Assembly: GCA_015655545.1 (NCBI GenBank)
Contig: JAATET010000031.1
Coordinates: 1 to 64,000, forward strand
Direction of reading: 5' to 3'
Origin: Chthoniobacterales bacterium
Lineage (GTDB): Bacteria > Verrucomicrobiota > Verrucomicrobiia > Chthoniobacterales > JAATET01
DNA length: 64,000 nt
A program made the translations under genes and the position numbers. Shown here piece after piece: positions 31,243 to 41,084 of this stretch. Under the pieces are notes generated by a model. That model ran no database searches and was not told the origin of the DNA. It saw nothing but the letters and a program-made list of their open reading frames with translations. The stretch's first letter is position 1; every line of letters begins with the position of its first letter.

Positions 31243-32009
31243 ACCCGATCAAAACCACCTTCCTATTATCCATGGGCATGCTTTGCGGCGTGCTTCAGGC
31301 GCAGCAAGTTTTTACCACCGATGTGCAGATCACCAGCACGAACGCCGCGGCGCCAAACCTGAAGACTACCGGCCCTGGCGGCGTGCTTTTTGGCGGCACC
31401 TTCGGCAGCGGGAGTCTTCCGACCACCGGAGATGGCGCGCGATTCATGTGGTATCCGAAAAAGGCAGCCCTCCGAGTCGGCTGGGTGGATTCTGGACGGT
31501 GGGACGACGCCAATATCGGCGATTACTCCATGGGAATCGGAGCCAACTCCATCGCATCAGGCTACAGCACGATAGCGCTCGGGTCCGCTATGGCCTCAGG
31601 GCACCAAGCCTTTGCGGCCGGCTGGGGCTCACAGGCTACGGGCAGCTTTGCCGCGGCGGTTTCCGTTGGCACCGCGACCAATTATTGCACATTTGCCGCC
31701 GCTTTGGGCACCGCCAATGGTTACCAGAGTGTGGCCCTCGGGGGGCTGGCCCTGGGCAGTTATTCCACGGCGATTGGCATAAACGCCCAATCGGTCACGG
31801 TTGGTTCGACGGTGGTGGGGCAATACAATGAGCTGGGCGGGAATCCCACGGTCCCGGCCAATACTGATGCCATCTTCATCGTGGGCACCGGGACGGGAAC
31901 CGGCGATCGAAAGAATGGCTTCGAAGTGCGGCGCGACGGCACCGTGCGCATCGCCAAACGCCAGGGCGACATCGTGATGGGTGTTTTTGGTAACGGCGGC
32001 GGCGATTAG
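31239..32009 (+). CDS. YadA-head-like beta-roll secreted protein
   Basis: A 256-residue protein with a signal peptide ending GVLQAQ. Residues 90-190 are a chain of 14-15-residue repeats of the trimeric autotransporter head type: GDYSMGIGANSIASGYSTIALGSAMASG, then HQAFAAGWGSQATGSFAAAVSVG and so on. Unlike YadA adhesins it has no stalk and no C-terminal membrane anchor, ending with GRRDGTVRIAKRQGDIVMG-like sequence. So it is either a soluble trimeric beta-roll or held by another protein. It is the second gene of the RHS cassette. Confidence 0.75.
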   Translation: MNPIKTTFLLSMGMLCGVLQAQQVFTTDVQITSTNAAAPNLKTTGPGGVLFGGTFGSGSLPTTGDGARFMWYPKKAALRVGWVDSGRWDDANIGDYSMGIGANSIASGYSTIALGSAMASGHQAFAAGWGSQATGSFAAAVSVGTATNYCTFAAALGTANGYQSVALGGLALGSYSTAIGINAQSVTVGSTVVGQYNELGGNPTVPANTDAIFIVGTGTGTGDRKNGFEVRRDGTVRIAKRQGDIVMGVFGNGGGD

Positions 32010-32022
32010 AAGGAACCAACCC

Positions 32023-32790
32023 ATGCGACGTATCAATTTATTGACCGGACTGGCGTGCCTATTGGCATGCGGTCATTTGGACGCAGCGGAGCCTGCTTGG
32101 TGGAGATCCGGTGTGACGCAGTGCATGGATACGACTCCGAGCACCACCGAGAACTATCAGCCCGTAAATCAAGGCCAGCTCAAGAACGTTGCCACCAAGG
32201 CCGCGCTTTATCTAAATGCCACACTGGCGAGCGTGGGTGGCGCGGGCACGGCGGTTAACAACATGGTCGCCAGTTTTCAACATACGTCGGAAGACTATGC
32301 CCCGATCAATATTGGTCAGCTTAAAGCGATAGCTAAGCCATTTTACGACCGCCTCATGGCCGTTGGTTACAACACGAAACTTAGCTTGGCATACCAAGGC
32401 GCTACAGAATGGAGCTATGATTATCCTTGGAATTCGGCGACACCAGCTTCGGAAAATTACGCAATTGCGAATATTGGTCAGTTGAAACTAGTGTTTAGTT
32501 TTGATGTGACCGATTCCGACGCAGACGGGTTGCCTGACTGGTGGGAACTGCAATATGGCGGGTCACTGACCACGTTGAACGGCGATGGCATTCACGACAC
32601 GGACGGGGATGGCATTAGCGACCTGGCGGCGTATCAACTCGGATTGAATCCCGTCTCCAATCATCTGAACAACGCGACCGAGACCGAAAACATTAGCTAC
32701 GACGCGGCGCACCGCATCACGGCTGTGAGCGGCCGAAGTGCGCTCGGCTATACGCAAGATGCGGGTGGCAACTTGGTGCACAGCAATTAG
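32023..32790 (+). CDS. Secreted GQLK-repeat protein with calcium-binding and YD segment
   Basis: A 255-residue protein. After the signal (LLTGLACLLACGHLDA) three copies of an NxGQLK motif occur: QPVNQGQLKNVATKA, APINIGQLKAIAKPF and IANIGQLKLVFSF. They are followed by an acidic Asp-rich stretch like thrombospondin type 3 repeats (DSDADGLPDWWELQYGG, DTDGDGISDLAAYQLGLNP) and a short YD-like end (ISYDAAHRITAVSGRSALGYTQDAGGNLVH). It looks like a detached leader of an RHS protein, and the RHS gene starts 12 bases later. Confidence 0.7.
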   Translation: MRRINLLTGLACLLACGHLDAAEPAWWRSGVTQCMDTTPSTTENYQPVNQGQLKNVATKAALYLNATLASVGGAGTAVNNMVASFQHTSEDYAPINIGQLKAIAKPFYDRLMAVGYNTKLSLAYQGATEWSYDYPWNSATPASENYAIANIGQLKLVFSFDVTDSDADGLPDWWELQYGGSLTTLNGDGIHDTDGDGISDLAAYQLGLNPVSNHLNNATETENISYDAAHRITAVSGRSALGYTQDAGGNLVHSN

Positions 32791-32802
32791 GGGAACATCT
32801 GT

Positions 32803-35800
32803 ATGAAAGACCGGCAGACCGTTGATAGGAAAAGTTGTTTGGTCGCCTTGCTCATCCTGGCATCGTGTGTCTTAATGGGCAATCGCACCAATGCGATGTC
32901 CTCGACAGCCTCCAGCGACGCCGATTACCGCACTCCAGAATTAATCGCCCTAGCCGCGGGATTGAAGAATGATCGGGAATCAATTTTCAAATGGGTGCGT
33001 GAAAACATCCGTTACGTGCAGTATTACGGCTGCAAAAAGGGGGCCTATCTCACATATCTGGAGCGTAGTGGAAATGATGCGGACCAGAGCGCATTACTTG
33101 TCGCTCTTTGGCGGGCTGCGGGTATTTCGTGTCAATATGTCTGGGGCTGGGGAGAATTGCCGATATCTGCCGCGAATAATGTCGATTGGTATCATTACTT
33201 GGGTGCCGATGGTGTGCAGGACGTCGGCAACGGGAATACCTCTCTGGATCAACTGGTTTGGCTGCGTGGCGAACCGACTTATGGATGGTGGGATGGCTCT
33301 TTCTTGGCAAATAGCAAAGGGATGGCGCGAGTGTGGGTGCAAACGAACGTGAATGGCACCTTAAAAAGCTACGATCCTTCCTTTAAGTTAATTCAACCTG
33401 TCGCTGGACTCGCTGTTGCGTCACTGATGAATTACAATAGAGCAAGCTTGTTGAGCAGTTTGGGCGCTGGAACAACGGGAACCAATTCCATCACGGGGCT
33501 GAGTTATTCCGGGTTAAGTGCTTATCTTTCTGGTTGCGCCGCTCAGTTCATAACGACGTATCAAAATTCTCATTTTAATAAAACCGTCGATGAAATCGTG
33601 GGTGGCTGGAAACCTCTTTCAAGCGAGAGTCTTACATTTCCAATCACGTCGGTGATGACCACGAATGACCTATTGGATAACTTGTCCACGACCACCACCG
33701 GTGGGCAAACGGTTTACGTGGGATACGCCTCAATTAAGATCCAGGTGTTTCTTTCGTCCGACACCGGCCACACCAGTCCCATTGTCACTTGGGGGGCGGT
33801 TAATATGGCAAGTTTAAGGGGACGGCGTCTCGGATTGGTCTCCGAGAGCAATAAAGTTACGTTAAAACTGGATGATACCCAGATCGTTCAAGCAGCGTCG
33901 ACCACGACAGTCGGAACGCCCCTGGATATCGTAGTCGATATCACTCATGCGGGTTCTCCATATATAAATCCAGCTTTCAACTTGATCGGCAAGGTTATGA
34001 AGGCAAAGGCGGGTGCAAGTTATGCGCTCGTTTATGGTTTCGATGTATCCTCGGATTATCTCAATACGCGCCAGCAGCAATTGGCAAGCTATAAGGAGCA
34101 GGGATTGGGCGATCAAGATCCCAAAATGATTTTGGAGACGCTGAATATCATAGGCCTGCAATGGATGCTCGAGACCGATTCGGCCCACGGATTAATAGGA
34201 AATCTAAAAAATCTATCGTCCACATTTCTTTATCGCTTTGGTCGGGCGGCGCAGGAACCGACGACATCAGGAAATGCTGTATATGTTGATTTGCCTTTCA
34301 ATTACACCGGATATGTTTCGCGCGTGCCCGACACCGGCGCAGCGAATACCCTGACAGCGGAATCGGCCTACAGCTTTATCATGAGCGCCATGGAGCATGG
34401 CGTGCTGGACCAGATGCAGGCGGTGACGGCTGTTTCGACGGTAAAAGTGCTTAAAATGGCCAATGAACAATCGATTCCCATTTTTCTGGCGAATCCCGGT
34501 AACTGGTCTTCAGTGCGGTCGCAATTGATACCGCTAATTAATATCTTTTCTCCCTATGGAGCCGGGGACCTCGCGCAACTCGACGGCGCTATTAGTGAAG
34601 GTGCCAGTATTTTGCTTCCCAAGAATGGTCACATAACCCAGTCCGGGTGGGCTTGGAATGGGTCTGCTTATGCCGCGATTCTTTGGAATGCGGTCGGGTC
34701 GTCGTATTGGAAAATGATCATTGGTCAGACTTACAATGGGGGTTTTTCAACCCTTCCCAATGTTCAGACCAACCCCAGTTCCGTTCTGACTCAAAGTCAT
34801 GCTCAGGCAAATCTGTTTCAAAAAAACCCGGTGACATTGAAGGTGAGTTACGGTCTCGATCCCGTGAATCTCGCGACCGGTAACTTTACGCACCAGAGGG
34901 AATTGCTCACGGCTGGGGATGGCCTTGTTCGCGGACTCAATTTCTCGGTTAGTTACGATGGGGGGGACAGGCTCAAGAACGACGCCAAGATCGGCTACGG
35001 CTGGACCCACAGCTACTATGTGCGTGCGGTGGAAATGGCGGATGTCGATGGGGCCTTTGGGAAAAAAACACCCATCGAGATGGCGGCAACGCTTGCGGGC
35101 GTCGTGGCGGCGCTGGATGTCTTCGCCAACCGAACAACCGTGAAGGACTGGCTGGGAACGGCCTTGATTGCGAACTGGATGGTGGATCAGTTGACGGGCA
35201 GTGCCGTTTCCATCGTTTCCGGAAACCAGATTTGGCAGTTCCACAAGCAGGCGGACGGCAGCTACTCAGCGCCTCCGGGGGCGACCCAGGTGCTGACCAA
35301 ACCGGCAAACTATCAACTCGTGGAGCGCAACGGTCCCACTTGGAAATTCGATGCGAATAAGCGGCTCTCAGAGATTGAAGACCTTTGGGGGAAGAAGCTG
35401 ACGCTTAACTACAACACGAATGGCGATCTTGGAACCGTAGCGGACGCTTATGGGCGGACTTTGACTTTTAATTACATTGGTTCGGGTGCGGCGGCAGTTT
35501 TGAACACGGTTGCGGACAATAGCTCTCGAAGCGTGACTTTCACGATCGACAGTTCAAAAAATCTGACCGCTTTCACCGATCCGGAAGGCAAATCCGATAA
35601 TTTCGAATATGTCTCCGGACATTTGATCGCAAATTACAAAAACCACGACGGCAATGTCGTGGTCTCGAATGTCTACGATGCCCAGGGACGGGTCGCGACC
35701 CAGGATACCATGGGCGACCCGGCCCAACGCTGGCACCTTTATTATTCTCCCGGGCAGACCATCGAGCAGGAGCCGGGCGGAGCGTCGACACTTCACTTTT

Positions 35801-38790
35801 TCGATGGCCGCAATCGTGAGGTCGAGGTGGACAATGCGTTCGGCCACCGCCTGCTGACCACCTATGACGCACAGGACCGCATCCGGAAAAAGGAACGGAT
35901 CGTCGAGACCACGGTCGACGAGACGATGCTCTACGATTATGACAATAATCATAACCTCACCGTGGAGACCGATCCCAAGGGGAAGACGACGGTCTATGCT
36001 TACGATGGCAGCAATCAGCTCACGAGTGTGAAGGACAAGCGCGGTAATTACACCTATTACCAAAACTACAATGCGCAGCATCAGCCGCAGCAGATTACCG
36101 ATCGGGAAAACCGGGTCGTCACCTGCACCTACAAACCACCCGCCGATCCGGGGGCTGGCTATCTCGCCTCGGTTACGGAGGGCGGGTTTACGACCAGCTA
36201 TGGCTACGACGCCAAGGGCGCGTTGAATTCGATCACCTATCCCGGCGGCGCCGGCGAGAGCATGGTGAATAACGCCTTTGGGGATCCCGCCACCAGAACC
36301 GATGAACTCACCCGGCAGACGCTCATCGAGTATAACCTGCGCCGCGAAGTCACCAGCACGACCACCCCCGGCTCGAGTAGCGGCTCGCGGACAAGCTACA
36401 TGAGCTATGACAATAAGCGCGACCTGCTCGGGATATGGAATCCGCGAGGATATGCGACTTTTACGTTTCAGACCGTGACGCACAAGCCGGGGCAGACGAC
36501 CCTGCCCGACGGCAGCGTGGCGTGGAGCCTCTACGACATCAACGACCGTGTGCAGTGGACCGCCACGTTATTGACGCTCTGGACTCACCACACCCGGGAC
36601 ACGCTGGGGCGGGAGACGGCCCTCACCGATCCCATCGGTCGGACGACGACCACGATCTTTCAGGACGACCTCCGCAAGACGATCGTGCAGAGCCCGTCGC
36701 CGCTCAATATCCAGACCAAGGCGACCGTCGACGAGCGCGGGCAGGTGGTGCGGGACGAGGACGGCCTGGGCAACTATGCGACTCCCGGCTACGACGACAA
36801 CGGCAACAAGACGACGTGGATCGACCGCCGGGGGAAAACGTGGTCATTCGTCTACGACAAGGAGGATCGGCTGATCACGACGACGAGCCCGCTCTCCCGG
36901 GCGACGCAGAGCCCATATAACGCGCGAGGGCTGCTCGATCACATCACCGAGCCCTCCACGCAAGTGACGACGTTCGGCTACGATGGGAGGCGACGCCTCA
37001 CGAGTCGTGCCGACGCCGTGGGAACGATCAATTACGGGCTCGATAACGCGAGCCAACTGCTCACCGTCACGCAAGGCGCGGCGGTGCTCGCGCGCACCTA
37101 TTATGGCAGCGGGGAGGTCGCGACCTATAAGAACGCGAACAACGAGACGACCGGCTACGATTACGACAAGGATGGCAACCTGACCTCGCTGACGTATCCG
37201 GCGGTCGGAAGCGTGCCATCGGCGACGGTGACCTACACGTATGACAATCGCGACCGGCTGACGAGCATGACGGATTGGGCGGGGCGGATCACCACCTATT
37301 CATGGGACGCGGAAGGGAAGCTGACGGGAGTGACCCGGCCTAACGGGACGAAGAGGCGATTGAGCTGGGATTGGGCGGGGGAGATGCTGGCCGTCGAGGA
37401 GAGGCCGGCGAGCGGAGCGCCGCTGGCGGTGCGATCCTTCCATTACGACGCGGCGGGACGAATCGACAAACGCCTGATCTATCCGCAGGCGACGGCGTGG
37501 GCGGAGCCGGCGTGGACGGCGGTTCCCGACAACGACAATCGACTCACGTCGGTGGCCGGAGCGACGTTGAGCTACGACGCGGATGGCAACCTGCAGGGAA
37601 GCCGTTTGCCGGACGGCCCATGGGGATCGAGCGGCACGTCCTCGGGGGTGAGCGGGACATTTACCTGGAATGCGCGCAATCAACTCACGGGCGTAGTCCG
37701 GACCGGAGGGCAGACGGCCGGCTACACCTACGACGCGGAAGGGAATCTCATTCAGACGGTCGATAGTGTGGCGGGAACGACACGGTGGATCATTGACCCA
37801 AACGGAGGCGAGAGCCCGCGCATTCTGGCGAAGGTGGCGCCCAATGGAAACGTGACGCGCTACGTATATGGAGTTGGCCTTGTCTATGAAGTGAGGCAGG
37901 ATGGGAGCGTGCGCTACTATCACTACGATCAGGTGGGGAGCACGGTGGCGTTGACCGACGGCACCGGCGCGGTGACAGGGAGGGCGGACTACAGCCCGTA
38001 TGGCACCCTGCAAAGCACGAGTGGAGAATTGGCCAATGCGAATGCCACGCCATTTCTCTTCGTAGGGGCCTATGGAGTGATGACGGATTCGGTGACGGGG
38101 CTACATCAGATGCGGGCTCGGTGGTATTCAAGCTACTTGCGTCGGTTCCTCAATGAAGACCCCAGCAGATTTGCGGGCGGGGAGAACTTTTATGCTTATG
38201 CTTCAGGCAATCCTATCAGCCTTGTTGATCCGAGTGGATTGTGGGGCGTCCAATTTGGGGAAGATGGAATGAATATTGGGAAAGGAGATCCAACGCTCGT
38301 TTTTACGGCGAGAGGAACGTCGAACGCTTATGGAAGTGTATTAAGCTCTATTGCAGATACGCTCACGCTTTCAGGTGGGCGTCTTTCAGCAGCCAATGAA
38401 AATTTCCGTTCGGGAGGTCGAGAGCCAATCAACGTAAATCCTAATACTCTAGACTTTAGTCAATTGAAACCCGGACAAAAGTTTTATACCTTTCCGATTA
38501 CTTCGCCGGGGGATTTTGTTGTCCATGGAACGGTATTAGTCAATCCTTCCACAATGAGCGTTCGCGACGATTATGATTTTGATCTTAAGCCGTGGACCTT
38601 AAAAACTGCGGTGAGAAATACAGAAACGATAGCAGCCCATTTTATTGCCGATCCGCTTGATGCGTTTACTGATTTCTCTGGTAGAAGAACTGGATCTGCA
38701 AATAAATCTGGGAATGGGGCATTTCCATTTAATTTCACGAGTTCTATTTCGAGTGTCGGCTCAAAATCTTCTGGCTCTATTTGGAAATGA
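32803..38790 (+). CDS. Giant RHS/YD-repeat polymorphic toxin protein
   Basis: A 1995-residue secreted RHS protein. Signal-like start LVALLILASCVLMG; a transglutaminase-like domain at about 40-230 whose Cys is replaced (GNDADQSALLVALW) and His by Arg (MARVWVQT); then a long region and about 900 residues of YD repeats (SYGYDAKGALNSITYPG and many like it). The invariant RHS core RARWYSSYLRRFLNEDPSRFAG ... NPISLVDPSGLWG is at about 1771-1816. The last 180 residues are the variable tip, far less GC-rich, with a DDYDFDLKPW segment; I do not recognise its toxin family. The TGA overlaps the ATG of a small lipoprotein gene. Confidence 0.9.
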   Translation: MKDRQTVDRKSCLVALLILASCVLMGNRTNAMSSTASSDADYRTPELIALAAGLKNDRESIFKWVRENIRYVQYYGCKKGAYLTYLERSGNDADQSALLVALWRAAGISCQYVWGWGELPISAANNVDWYHYLGADGVQDVGNGNTSLDQLVWLRGEPTYGWWDGSFLANSKGMARVWVQTNVNGTLKSYDPSFKLIQPVAGLAVASLMNYNRASLLSSLGAGTTGTNSITGLSYSGLSAYLSGCAAQFITTYQNSHFNKTVDEIVGGWKPLSSESLTFPITSVMTTNDLLDNLSTTTTGGQTVYVGYASIKIQVFLSSDTGHTSPIVTWGAVNMASLRGRRLGLVSESNKVTLKLDDTQIVQAASTTTVGTPLDIVVDITHAGSPYINPAFNLIGKVMKAKAGASYALVYGFDVSSDYLNTRQQQLASYKEQGLGDQDPKMILETLNIIGLQWMLETDSAHGLIGNLKNLSSTFLYRFGRAAQEPTTSGNAVYVDLPFNYTGYVSRVPDTGAANTLTAESAYSFIMSAMEHGVLDQMQAVTAVSTVKVLKMANEQSIPIFLANPGNWSSVRSQLIPLINIFSPYGAGDLAQLDGAISEGASILLPKNGHITQSGWAWNGSAYAAILWNAVGSSYWKMIIGQTYNGGFSTLPNVQTNPSSVLTQSHAQANLFQKNPVTLKVSYGLDPVNLATGNFTHQRELLTAGDGLVRGLNFSVSYDGGDRLKNDAKIGYGWTHSYYVRAVEMADVDGAFGKKTPIEMAATLAGVVAALDVFANRTTVKDWLGTALIANWMVDQLTGSAVSIVSGNQIWQFHKQADGSYSAPPGATQVLTKPANYQLVERNGPTWKFDANKRLSEIEDLWGKKLTLNYNTNGDLGTVADAYGRTLTFNYIGSGAAAVLNTVADNSSRSVTFTIDSSKNLTAFTDPEGKSDNFEYVSGHLIANYKNHDGNVVVSNVYDAQGRVATQDTMGDPAQRWHLYYSPGQTIEQEPGGASTLHFFDGRNREVEVDNAFGHRLLTTYDAQDRIRKKERIVETTVDETMLYDYDNNHNLTVETDPKGKTTVYAYDGSNQLTSVKDKRGNYTYYQNYNAQHQPQQITDRENRVVTCTYKPPADPGAGYLASVTEGGFTTSYGYDAKGALNSITYPGGAGESMVNNAFGDPATRTDELTRQTLIEYNLRREVTSTTTPGSSSGSRTSYMSYDNKRDLLGIWNPRGYATFTFQTVTHKPGQTTLPDGSVAWSLYDINDRVQWTATLLTLWTHHTRDTLGRETALTDPIGRTTTTIFQDDLRKTIVQSPSPLNIQTKATVDERGQVVRDEDGLGNYATPGYDDNGNKTTWIDRRGKTWSFVYDKEDRLITTTSPLSRATQSPYNARGLLDHITEPSTQVTTFGYDGRRRLTSRADAVGTINYGLDNASQLLTVTQGAAVLARTYYGSGEVATYKNANNETTGYDYDKDGNLTSLTYPAVGSVPSATVTYTYDNRDRLTSMTDWAGRITTYSWDAEGKLTGVTRPNGTKRRLSWDWAGEMLAVEERPASGAPLAVRSFHYDAAGRIDKRLIYPQATAWAEPAWTAVPDNDNRLTSVAGATLSYDADGNLQGSRLPDGPWGSSGTSSGVSGTFTWNARNQLTGVVRTGGQTAGYTYDAEGNLIQTVDSVAGTTRWIIDPNGGESPRILAKVAPNGNVTRYVYGVGLVYEVRQDGSVRYYHYDQVGSTVALTDGTGAVTGRADYSPYGTLQSTSGELANANATPFLFVGAYGVMTDSVTGLHQMRARWYSSYLRRFLNEDPSRFAGGENFYAYASGNPISLVDPSGLWGVQFGEDGMNIGKGDPTLVFTARGTSNAYGSVLSSIADTLTLSGGRLSAANENFRSGGREPINVNPNTLDFSQLKPGQKFYTFPITSPGDFVVHGTVLVNPSTMSVRDDYDFDLKPWTLKTAVRNTETIAAHFIADPLDAFTDFSGRRTGSANKSGNGAFPFNFTSSISSVGSKSSGSIWK

Positions 38791-39110
38791 ATTTCTTTAA
38801 ATGGCGGTTTCTATTTGAGATAGCAATGGGAGTGGTTTACCTAACGGGGTGCCACGAACTTAAGATTGATGAAAAGGAAGCTCGAAAGTATGCACAACAG
38901 CGCTTTGAAAAAGATTGCGAAATGATCAATCAACGAGCGGATAAGTTCGTTGGGCCGCAATTCACAGGAACAAGTAAAGGTAATACAGGGGAAATATGGT
39001 ATCAATACGTGTGGGAAAATAAACTTTCCAATACGGAAATTATCGTTGGAGTGTCTGAATCTGGAGAAATCGCAGGAGGGACAGGCCCGATTGAGCGACG
39101 GCAACCATAG
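38787..39110 (+). CDS. Candidate immunity lipoprotein for the RHS tip
   Basis: A 107-residue protein with a lipoprotein signal (FEIAMGVVYLTGC) and a hydrophilic mature part of about 83 residues rich in Lys, Glu and Gln. The ATG overlaps the TGA of the RHS gene (ATGA at 38787-38790). Tip domain plus tightly coupled small gene is the usual arrangement of a polymorphic toxin and its immunity protein. A lipoprotein would place protection at the envelope, which would fit a toxin acting in the periplasm or at the membrane. No family recognised. Confidence 0.65.
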   Translation: MNFFKWRFLFEIAMGVVYLTGCHELKIDEKEARKYAQQRFEKDCEMINQRADKFVGPQFTGTSKGNTGEIWYQYVWENKLSNTEIIVGVSESGEIAGGTGPIERRQP

Positions 39111-39177: not shown

Positions 39178-40157
39178 GGGTCAGTCCTCATTATTGACAA
39201 AAGAGGGATGAGAAGTTAAAGGGCGAGGATGCCGAGGCAGGCGCGGATTGAATACGAAGGGGCGATTTACCATGTGATGAACCGCGGGGACCGGCGGGAG
39301 AACATCGTGCATGGGGACGAAGACAGAAAATCTTTCGTGAAGACGTTGGGGGAGGCTTGCGGGAAATGCGGATGGGAGGTTCACGCATGGTGCCTGATGT
39401 CGAACCATTTTCATTTGGTGGTGGAAACTCCACTCGGCAATCTAGTGGCGGGAATGAAATGGCTCCTGGGCACCTATACGATCCGGTTCAATGCACGGCA
39501 TCGACTGCGCGGGCACCTGTTTGCGGGGCGCTACAAATCTGTAGTTGTCGACGACGCGGATCACCATTACTTGCGTCGGGTGAGCGACTACGTGCATCTC
39601 AATCCCGCCCGTGCAGGATTGATCAGCCAGAGCGAGCCTTTGGAAGCCTACCCGTGGAGCAGCTATCGGGCCTATCTGCAAAAGAAGCGTCCACCTTGGC
39701 TCAGGGTGGATCGTGTCCTCGGCGAGCATGGCGTGCAAATCGATAACCATGCGGGACGGCTTGAATTCGCGCGATGCGTGGAAGCCATTCGGAATGATCC
39801 AGAGGCTGAGGCGAGTGATCGAAGCCTGTTGCGGGGATGGCGCGCCGGGAGCGAAGAATTTGTCGCCCGGTTGCTGGACAGGCTCGAGGGAAAAATCACG
39901 CCGCACCACTCTGCCGATATGCGGAGCGAGGTGATGTCACTGCGGGCCGACAGATTGATTGCGGAAGGTCTTGCCAAGGCAAACTGGACAGCAGATCGGC
40001 TTGCGCACGAGAAAAAGAGCCACCCGGTAAAAGTCGCCATTGCCAAGCAACTGCGATCCCAAACCACTATGAGCCTAGCTTGGATTGCGGACCGACTCCA
40101 CATGGGACGTTGGACGTATGTTTCCAGTCTTTTAAGACAACAATGAGGACTGACCCC
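39178..40157 (+). mobile_element. REP-associated transposase unit with inverted ends
   Basis: The element is bounded by GGGTCAGTCCTCATT at 39178 and AATGAGGACTGACCCC ending at 40157, an inverted pair over about 15 bases with a weaker match beyond, and holds one Y1 transposase gene. A third copy of the end sequence stands alone at 41646. IS200-like and RAYT elements normally have short palindromes rather than classical terminal repeats, so whether these ends are the transposase recognition sites or separate REPs is not settled. The right end overlaps the transposase stop codon. Confidence 0.7.
39229..40146 (+). CDS. REP-associated tyrosine transposase (RAYT)
   Basis: A 305-residue Y1 transposase of the IS200/RAYT branch: opening RIEYEGAIYHVMNRGDRRENI, HUH motif SNHFHLVVETP, then RARHRLRGHLFAGRYKSVVVDD and the catalytic-region tyrosine in RRVSDYVHLNPARAG, followed by PWSSYRAYL. 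The C-terminal extension of about 130 residues is typical of the domesticated or RAYT-type group, whose members process hairpin repeats. Several families of hairpin repeats are present in this window, which fits such a role. Codon use is like the host rather than the AT-rich neighbours on either side. Confidence 0.92.
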   Translation: MPRQARIEYEGAIYHVMNRGDRRENIVHGDEDRKSFVKTLGEACGKCGWEVHAWCLMSNHFHLVVETPLGNLVAGMKWLLGTYTIRFNARHRLRGHLFAGRYKSVVVDDADHHYLRRVSDYVHLNPARAGLISQSEPLEAYPWSSYRAYLQKKRPPWLRVDRVLGEHGVQIDNHAGRLEFARCVEAIRNDPEAEASDRSLLRGWRAGSEEFVARLLDRLEGKITPHHSADMRSEVMSLRADRLIAEGLAKANWTADRLAHEKKSHPVKVAIAKQLRSQTTMSLAWIADRLHMGRWTYVSSLLRQQ

Positions 40158-40161
40158 ATAG

Positions 40162-40239
40162 CCGGCCGAAAATCGGAACAACTATGTTTACGAGGTTATT
40201 TACAACGAATTTGAGGGCCACGCATCATACCAAGAATGA
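40162..40239 (+). pseudogene. 3' remnant of a gene cut by the transposase unit
   Basis: Immediately right of the element a frame reads ENRNNYVYEVIYNEFEG ... SYQE and stops with TGA at 40237-40239, overlapping the ATG of the next gene. The left end of this frame meets a stop at 40159-40161, at the edge of the element. The overlap and the Tyr/Asn-rich composition suggest the tail of a displaced gene, perhaps a toxin tip or an immunity gene. It is short, so the call is weak. Confidence 0.35.
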
Positions 40240-41084
40240 AACTTTTTTTCTTAAGTCTATTCATGCTCGTCAGCCCTGCTTTGATAGTAAAGGGCAACGG
40301 ATCAATCACCGATCCTGTAAAGGACTATTTATCTAAGTTTACATTTTACGATGGTCGTAAAAATTTCTATTCTGATGACAGGTTGCTTCGATTAGACATA
40401 GATTTAAATAATGACGGTCAACAGGAAATGTTGCTCTCATTAGCAAGGGATAAAAACGGTAAACAGGGGAACACTTGGGCTGTATATCGGAAAACAAAAA
40501 TCGGCTATGAAGACATAGGCGGAATGACTTTTAGCTCAAGTGGTTTTTACCTTGGACATATCAACGATACTGATGACTATGGGATTGTAAGCTTCTGGCC
40601 GGGAGGTGCTGGAGAAGGGATGTTGTTGGCACACATCTTCGATGGTTCGGAGATCAAAGAGATACAAATTGGAGAGATAAGACGGGATCCAATCACTGGA
40701 AAACTCGAAGGCAAAGAACTTCTTGATAAATATTCGGGCTCTCATGCGATAAATGGTGACAACGTGATTACTACCATAAGTGCCGTCCAACTAGCCAAAG
40801 ATTACGGAATTACTATTGAACCCCAAACTTATCTCCAAGCCCTGCAGGAGGGCTTGCCAGCATCGACTCCGATAAGAACTCCTCTAGCTTCGGCTGTGGC
40901 AACACCGCCACTGGAAATGCCTAAGCCGTCCCCGTCAGCCGTAGCATCGACACCGCGACCGAGTGCGACCGCGACGACCGCCACGGAAAAGCCAGCTTCC
41001 AGCTTCTCTATCGTTTCCGCAGTGATTCTGACGGGGATAATCACGGGTGTGTCGGTGTTCATGTGGTGGCGGAAATCTCGCTAA
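40236..41084 (+). CDS. Secreted/membrane-anchored protein with VCBS-like segment
   Basis: A 282-residue protein with a signal (FFLSLFMLVSPALIVKGNG), a hydrophilic body with an FG-GAP/VCBS-like calcium loop LDIDLNNDGQQEMLLSLARD at about residue 50, a Pro/Ser/Thr/Ala linker and a C-terminal membrane helix FSIVSAVILTGIITGVSVFMWWRKSR. Base composition is AT-richer than the core genome, like the RHS tip. Its ATG overlaps the stop of the preceding remnant, so it may be an orphan immunity gene of an earlier toxin. No family recognised. Confidence 0.6.
   Translation: MKLFFLSLFMLVSPALIVKGNGSITDPVKDYLSKFTFYDGRKNFYSDDRLLRLDIDLNNDGQQEMLLSLARDKNGKQGNTWAVYRKTKIGYEDIGGMTFSSSGFYLGHINDTDDYGIVSFWPGGAGEGMLLAHIFDGSEIKEIQIGEIRRDPITGKLEGKELLDKYSGSHAINGDNVITTISAVQLAKDYGITIEPQTYLQALQEGLPASTPIRTPLASAVATPPLEMPKPSPSAVASTPRPSATATTATEKPASSFSIVSAVILTGIITGVSVFMWWRKSR

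What the first reader, a model, noticed from the sequence alone, without database searches (positions are those of the whole stretch)
38250..39110. RHS variable tip with ATGA-coupled lipoprotein as toxin-immunity pair
After the invariant core ending LVDPSGLWG, 180 low-GC residues without a recognised toxin family follow, and the stop is coupled to a 107-residue lipoprotein. This is the textbook layout of a polymorphic toxin and its immunity protein, and the lipoprotein signal points to a toxin acting at the envelope.
Basis: partly seen in the sequence, partly recalled or inferred. Interest (0 to 1): 0.65.

Follow-up and report, generated by a model that had tools for sequence, protein, structure and literature searches.

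The report
Colicin M-like toxin on RHS tip
The end of a giant exported bacterial RHS protein carries a very diverged relative of colicin M, a toxin that destroys the cell-wall building block lipid II, followed by a small membrane-anchored protein that probably protects the producer; the layout is ordinary for such weapons, but this toxin branch and its protector match no curated family.

Summary
A 1995-residue Sec-exported RHS protein (32803-38790) ends its core at LVDPSGLWG, continues with a 181-residue low-GC tip (43.6% against 60%) and overlaps by ATGA a 107-residue membrane-anchored protein with a lipobox-like LTGC. No Pfam, NCBIfam, PHROGs or PDB model hits the tip. A pattern search built on its YDFDxKPW motif uncovered an uncurated family of C-terminal domains, mostly RHS tips, in Bacteroidota and in this lineage, each followed by a lipoprotein or membrane-anchored small protein. 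The window tip is related to one member even with the motif masked (score 64 against a shuffled 28 +/- 4.5). That member is related to a tip in the same class, which passes Pfam's Colicin_M cut-off (2.9e-9) and hits colicin M and PaeM structures (1e-6). So the tip is most likely a diverged colicin M-like lipid II hydrolase acting in the periplasm. D226, Y228, D229 and probably R236 are kept; H235 is lost, as in the active burkhocins. The partner is most likely a periplasmic immunity protein, unrelated to Cmi/YebF. New variant of a known kind. Toxicity, lipid II cleavage, protection and delivery are untested; two AlphaFold models were unusable.

The parts
32803..38790 (+). Exported RHS polymorphic toxin, 1995 aa: N-terminal export signal (MKDRQTVDRKSCLVALLILASCVLMG..; SPI or lipobox LASC), transglutaminase-like domain (res. 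60-122), DUF6531 plug, RHS/YD repeats, Rhs_assc_core
   Evidence: Pfam/NCBIfam hits RHS_repeat 1.5e-49, Transglut_core 1.5e-8, DUF6531 2.3e-5, Rhs_assc_core 5.6e-18; export signal read from sequence by eye
38157..38244 (+). Core end EDPSRFAGGENFYAYASGNPISLVDPSGLW: both aspartates of the RHS aspartyl self-cleavage motif kept, D-to-D spacing 23 (as D1141/D1164 of Tse5); first DPxG is DPSR
   Evidence: motif and Tse5 comparison PMC10684867
38245..38787 (+). Variable tip, 181 aa, GC 43.6%
   Evidence: core alignments to other RHS genes stop here
38398..38787 (+). Colicin M-like domain (tip residues 52-181; best-conserved part residues 80-150)
   Evidence: W-L057 motif-masked score 64 vs 28+/-4.5; L057-L073 104 vs 25; L073-ColM 107 vs 27; hhalign to ColM 88.9-95%; L073 passes PF14859
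38566..38577 (+). D108-D109-Y110-D111, equivalent of colicin M D226-x-Y228-D229
   Evidence: alignments A5, A7, A4 and hhalign; essential residues PMC8469651
38614..38616 (+). R124, proposed equivalent of colicin M R236 (no equivalent of H235)
   Evidence: R kept in most of the tip family as RN/RS; the exact register across the KPW insertion is inferred
38787..39110 (+). Immunity candidate, 107 aa, start overlaps the toxin stop (ATGA); N-terminal membrane anchor with lipobox-like LTG-C22, periplasmic domain 23-107
   Evidence: homologue L043:4864-5187; no Pfam

Best explanation
The pair is a toxin-immunity module of a Sec-exported RHS polymorphic toxin. The tip is a very diverged colicin M-superfamily domain that, once released from the RHS shell by the aspartyl self-cleavage site, hydrolyses lipid II (undecaprenyl-PP-MurNAc-GlcNAc) on the periplasmic side of a rival's inner membrane and stops peptidoglycan synthesis. 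The downstream protein is exported, anchored in the membrane and blocks the domain in the periplasm. The producer needs it there both because sisters attack from outside and because its own RHS protein passes through its periplasm. Shown: layout, polymorphic boundary, homology to the colicin M superfamily through intermediates, catalytic aspartates and tyrosine kept, partner real and anchored, and membrane anchoring of the partners throughout the tip family. Inferred: enzymatic activity, self-cleavage, protection. Unknown: how the toxin reaches the target cell.
For: Homology chain with controls: window tip-L057 100 vs 52.6+/-5.6, motif masked 64 vs 28+/-4.5; L057-L073 104 vs 25+/-4; L073-colicin M 107 vs 27+/-5. 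L073 hits PF14859 Colicin_M at 2.9e-9, above cut-off, and PaeM/colicin M in the PDB at 8e-7/2e-6. hhalign of the family without L073 against colicin M: probability 88.9%, score 38, against at most 17.6 in 100 column-shuffled decoys and 11.9 reversed. D226/Y228/D229 and probably R236 kept. Every family member has an adjacent small lipoprotein or membrane-anchored protein, most overlapping or within about 10 nt of the toxin stop. Known colicin M immunities are periplasmic or membrane proteins of many unrelated types (PMC5821083). Colicin M is lethal only when it reaches the periplasm (PMC8469651); DUF3289, proposed as a colicin M homologue, is toxic in the periplasm (PMC11148199).
Against: No direct profile hit of the window tip to Colicin_M or DUF3289, and the tip alone against the ColM profile is not significant. 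H235, essential in colicin M, is missing. The tip has a C-terminal tail of about 30 residues not shared by relatives. AlphaFold failed (pLDDT 30 and 37), so the fold is not confirmed. No T6SS sheath gene was found, so delivery is unexplained. The anchor has a Glu in its hydrophobic stretch.
Confidence: 0.72

Rival explanations
1. The tip has the colicin M fold but no longer hydrolyses lipid II: it is either a dead remnant or a domain that binds lipid II or acts on another lipid-linked pyrophosphate substrate.
For: H235 replaced, KPW insertion between D229 and R236, shortened strand before the motif; some ColM-domain hybrids have degenerate motifs thought inactive (PMC5821083).
Against: The D-x-Y-D-F and R pattern is kept across two distant groups of bacteria, which a dead domain would not do. 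Burkhocins lack the histidine and are active bacteriocins (PMC4661593). The partner gene is intact and coupled.
Confidence: 0.17
2. The tip is an unrelated envelope toxin (pore former or other cell-wall enzyme); the likeness to colicin M is convergence around a YDF motif.
For: No direct database hit; the motif occurs by chance elsewhere, e.g. phage proteins.
Against: Motif-masked score to L057 is 8 SD above shuffles; L057-L073-ColM links are 16-19 SD above shuffles without motif selection; 0 of 100 decoys reach the profile score.
Confidence: 0.08
3. Orphaned or decayed module: the RHS gene is silent or its tip was displaced, and the downstream gene is retained as a stand-alone immunity or a domesticated envelope protein.
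For: A Y1 transposase gene follows directly; a homologue of the partner is an orphan in another genome; three same-genus genomes lack the pair.
Against: The whole 5985-nt frame is intact, both aspartates of the cleavage site are kept and the genes still overlap.
Confidence: 0.05

Closest known systems
Colicin M / ColM bacteriocin family (Pfam PF14859; colicin M, pectocin M, PaeM, syringacin M, burkhocin)
   Same: C-terminal domain homologous through L057 and L073; D226, Y228, D229 and probably R236 kept; immunity anchored at the membrane facing the periplasm.
   Different: Carried by an RHS shell, not by a TonB-dependent uptake module; H235 absent, KPW insertion, below Pfam threshold; immunity not YebF/Cmi.
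DUF3289-DUF943 T6SS effector-immunity pair (proposed colicin M homologue)
   Same: Colicin M-like domain recruited by a contact-dependent system; toxic in the periplasm, neutralised by a neighbouring partner (PMC11148199).
   Different: No PF11692 match in the own genome, including the window; no T6SS sheath gene found; partner unrelated by Pfam scan. Profile-profile comparison with DUF3289 not done.
Burkhocin M (BurM) with BmiB immunity
   Same: Histidine of the catalytic motif absent yet active; immunity with one N-terminal hydrophobic helix (PMC4661593).
   Different: Free bacteriocin, not RHS.
RHS effectors such as Tse5, RhsA, Rhs1
   Same: DUF6531 plug (Tse5), YD-repeat shell, aspartyl self-cleavage motif, variable tip plus immunity gene.
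   Different: Sec signal and transglutaminase-like domain instead of PAAR/T6SS parts; tip enzyme different.

Membership tests
Rhs polymorphic toxin-immunity module | RHS/YD-repeat core ending in Rhs_assc_core and DPxG | tested here: met
Rhs polymorphic toxin-immunity module | Tip differs between homologous cores, with a sharp boundary | tested here: met
   Core alignments stop at 1812-1814; G050 homologue of the same long architecture has an unrelated 189-aa tip
Rhs polymorphic toxin-immunity module | Aspartyl protease DPxG-x18/19-DPxG | tested here: inconclusive
   Both Asp kept at spacing 23, first motif DPSR; cleavage not testable
Rhs polymorphic toxin-immunity module | Small immunity gene directly downstream | tested here: met
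   ATGA overlap, 107 aa; protection not testable
Colicin M superfamily (PF14859) | Direct profile match above cut-off | tested here: not met
Colicin M superfamily (PF14859) | Homology by intermediates with controls | tested here: met
Colicin M superfamily (PF14859) | Catalytic motif DxYDx5HR | tested here: inconclusive
   DxYD met (D108, Y110, D111); R at a longer spacing (R124); H not met. H also absent in active burkhocins (PMC4661593)
Colicin M superfamily (PF14859) | Colicin M beta-barrel fold | tested here: inconclusive
   Models pLDDT 30 and 37
Colicin M superfamily (PF14859) | Lipid II hydrolysis | not testable with these tools
   needs the enzyme assay
DUF3289 (PF11692) | Profile match | tested here: not met
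Cmi/YebF immunity | YebF-type domain with two conserved cysteines | tested here: not met
   hhalign probability 0.9%; one non-lipobox Cys only
Bacterial lipoprotein (immunity candidate) | Signal peptide with lipobox [LVI][ASTVI][GAS]C | tested here: inconclusive
   LTGC present with K5/R7, but Glu11 in the hydrophobic stretch and Cys not kept in the homologue

The most novel reading that the evidence does not exclude
This is a separate, uncurated branch of the colicin M superfamily, spread by RHS proteins in Bacteroidota and in the window's (probably Verrucomicrobiota) lineage. It has replaced the catalytic histidine by a KPW-containing loop and pairs with at least four unrelated membrane-anchored immunity families, DUF3997 among them: lipid II destruction delivered by Sec-exported RHS shells without a T6SS.
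Probability: 0.45. Interest if true: 0.6.

Novelty: new variant of a known kind. Interest (0 to 1): 0.48.

Why it matters
It gives a named, testable activity to a toxin tip that no curated library recognises. It extends lipid II-degrading toxins from mainly proteobacterial bacteriocins and T6SS effectors to RHS proteins of Bacteroidota and a distant lineage, and suggests a function (colicin M-type immunity) for DUF3997. It also offers a natural comparison for whether H235 is needed, an open point in the colicin M mechanism.

Tried and rejected
Direct searches of the tip: Pfam, NCBIfam, PHROGs, PDB, plasmids, viral contigs, 8-mer scan of genome contigs: nothing. PDB hit DarT (0.024) was not reproduced with the domain alone. 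The G144 hit is diaminopimelate epimerase: chance. YDF-motif matches in viral contigs are phage structural and other proteins: chance. Alteromonas, Rhodococcus and some other pattern hits are chance. Weak profile hits in G486, G286, G124, G736, G741, G666 and G661 showed no tip of this kind where looked at; the remaining weak hits were not followed. hhalign of the immunity with Cmi/YebF was negative. Two AlphaFold jobs gave unusable models, so no Foldseek search was made. T6SS delivery: no VipB gene in the own genome (84% complete).

Full report
Observation. The 1995-residue frame 32803-38790 is an exported RHS protein: an N-terminal hydrophobic export signal (read by eye), a transglutaminase-like domain, DUF6531, nine RHS repeats and the RHS-associated core. 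The core ends ...NEDPSRFAGGENFYAYASGNPISLVDPSGLW at 38244. The remaining 181 residues have 43.6% GC against 60% in the core before it. The stop TGA overlaps the start of a 107-codon frame as ATGA. By base composition such a frame would arise at about 3e-4.

Boundary and polymorphism. When the core was searched in 38 related genomes, the alignments repeatedly stopped at residues 1812-1814. Beyond that point the tips are unrelated in sequence, including the only full-length homologue, G050, at 35% identity. So the tip is the variable module. The two aspartates of the RHS self-cleavage site are present with a spacing of 23, as in Tse5 D1141/D1164 (PMC10684867), although the first DPxG reads DPSR.

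Finding relatives. The tip gave no hit in Pfam, NCBIfam, PHROGs, the PDB, plasmids or viral contigs, and no convincing homologue in the genomes of its order and class that were searched with the single sequence. A pattern search for YDFDxKPW in 84,980 genomes returned 15 stretches, about the number I expected by chance. Yet eight of them lie 36-58 residues before the end of C-terminal domains, several with a readable RHS core, and each is followed by a small frame with a lipoprotein signal or membrane anchor. Profiles of these found two more RHS tips in the window's own class, G281 (L073) and G366 (L090), again with an overlapping, anchored partner.

Identity. L073 passes the Pfam cut-off for Colicin_M (2.9e-9) and hits PaeM, colicin M, other bacteriocins and pectocins in the PDB (8e-7 to 7e-5). 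Because L057 and L052 were picked by a motif, I tested similarity with the motif masked: window-L057 scores 64 against 28 +/- 4.5 in 500 shuffles. The following links need no masking: L057-L073 104 against 25, L073-colicin M 107 against 27. Window-L052 is weaker once masked (31 against 23 +/- 4), so L057 carries the argument. A profile of the window tip with L057, L052, L045 and L090, without L073, aligns to a six-sequence colicin M profile with probability 88.9% and score 38, against at most 17.6 in 100 column-shuffled decoys. With L073 it is 95%. The window tip alone does not reach significance against colicin M. Membership therefore rests on the chain.

Catalytic residues. Colicin M needs D226, Y228, D229, H235 and R236 (PMC8469651). 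The window tip has D108-D-Y110-D111-F, and an arginine, R124, kept through most of the family as RN or RS. There is no histidine; a KPW segment lies between. Burkhocins also lack the histidine and are active (PMC4661593). So the missing H lowers but does not remove the expectation of activity.

Partner. The 107-aa protein has a positively charged start and a hydrophobic stretch ending LTG-C22. A homologue in G111 (BLASTP 5e-8) is an orphan with a membrane anchor and no cysteine at that place. It is not Cmi/YebF. The other tips carry different partners: one group in Bacteroidota without a Pfam family, DUF3997 with L057 and L090 (3e-6 and 8e-11, both above cut-off), and a 98-aa anchored protein with L073. 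Colicin M itself is known for a variety of unrelated, membrane-associated immunity proteins (PMC5821083), so this variety fits.

Mechanism. Shown here: module layout, boundary, homology and anchored partners. Inferred: Sec export of the RHS shell, self-cleavage, hydrolysis of lipid II in the periplasm, neutralisation by the partner. Delivery is open: no T6SS sheath gene was found in the 84%-complete genome.

Known and new. RHS toxins with tip and immunity are textbook. Colicin M domains are known as bacteriocins, as DUF3289 T6SS effectors (PMC11148199, PMC12135965) and as a further colicin M-like toxin domain reported in a 2025 survey (PMC12419801). I found no paper describing RHS-borne colicin M tips in these groups, but most subscription journals are not in the library. 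I rate the finding a new variant of a known kind.

Noticed in passing
L057 (partner after 6025) and L090 (partner overlapping the stop at 2984): Partners of two colicin M-like tips are DUF3997 (PF13162) proteins with signal/anchor; no paper in the library mentions DUF3997. Candidate immunity family.
   Followed up: partly
31981-32790: Short frame just upstream of the RHS gene with a weak TSP3 repeat and one weak RHS repeat at its end: RHS remnant or companion.
   Followed up: no
39229-40146: Y1 (IS200-like) transposase gene directly after the immunity gene; may have helped move the module.
   Followed up: no
40236-41084: 282-aa probably exported protein of low GC (46%) with no Pfam or PHROGs match; could be a further cargo gene of the RHS island.
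   Followed up: no
L043:4864-5190: Orphan homologue of the immunity candidate between a fabF-like and a rarA-like gene, away from any RHS gene.
   Followed up: partly
L030 (G000:C102, about 35000-37500): Second RHS gene of the same genome with a glycine-rich tip that does not look like an enzyme.
   Followed up: no
32803-32880: The RHS protein's own start contains LASC, so it may itself be a lipoprotein.
   Followed up: no
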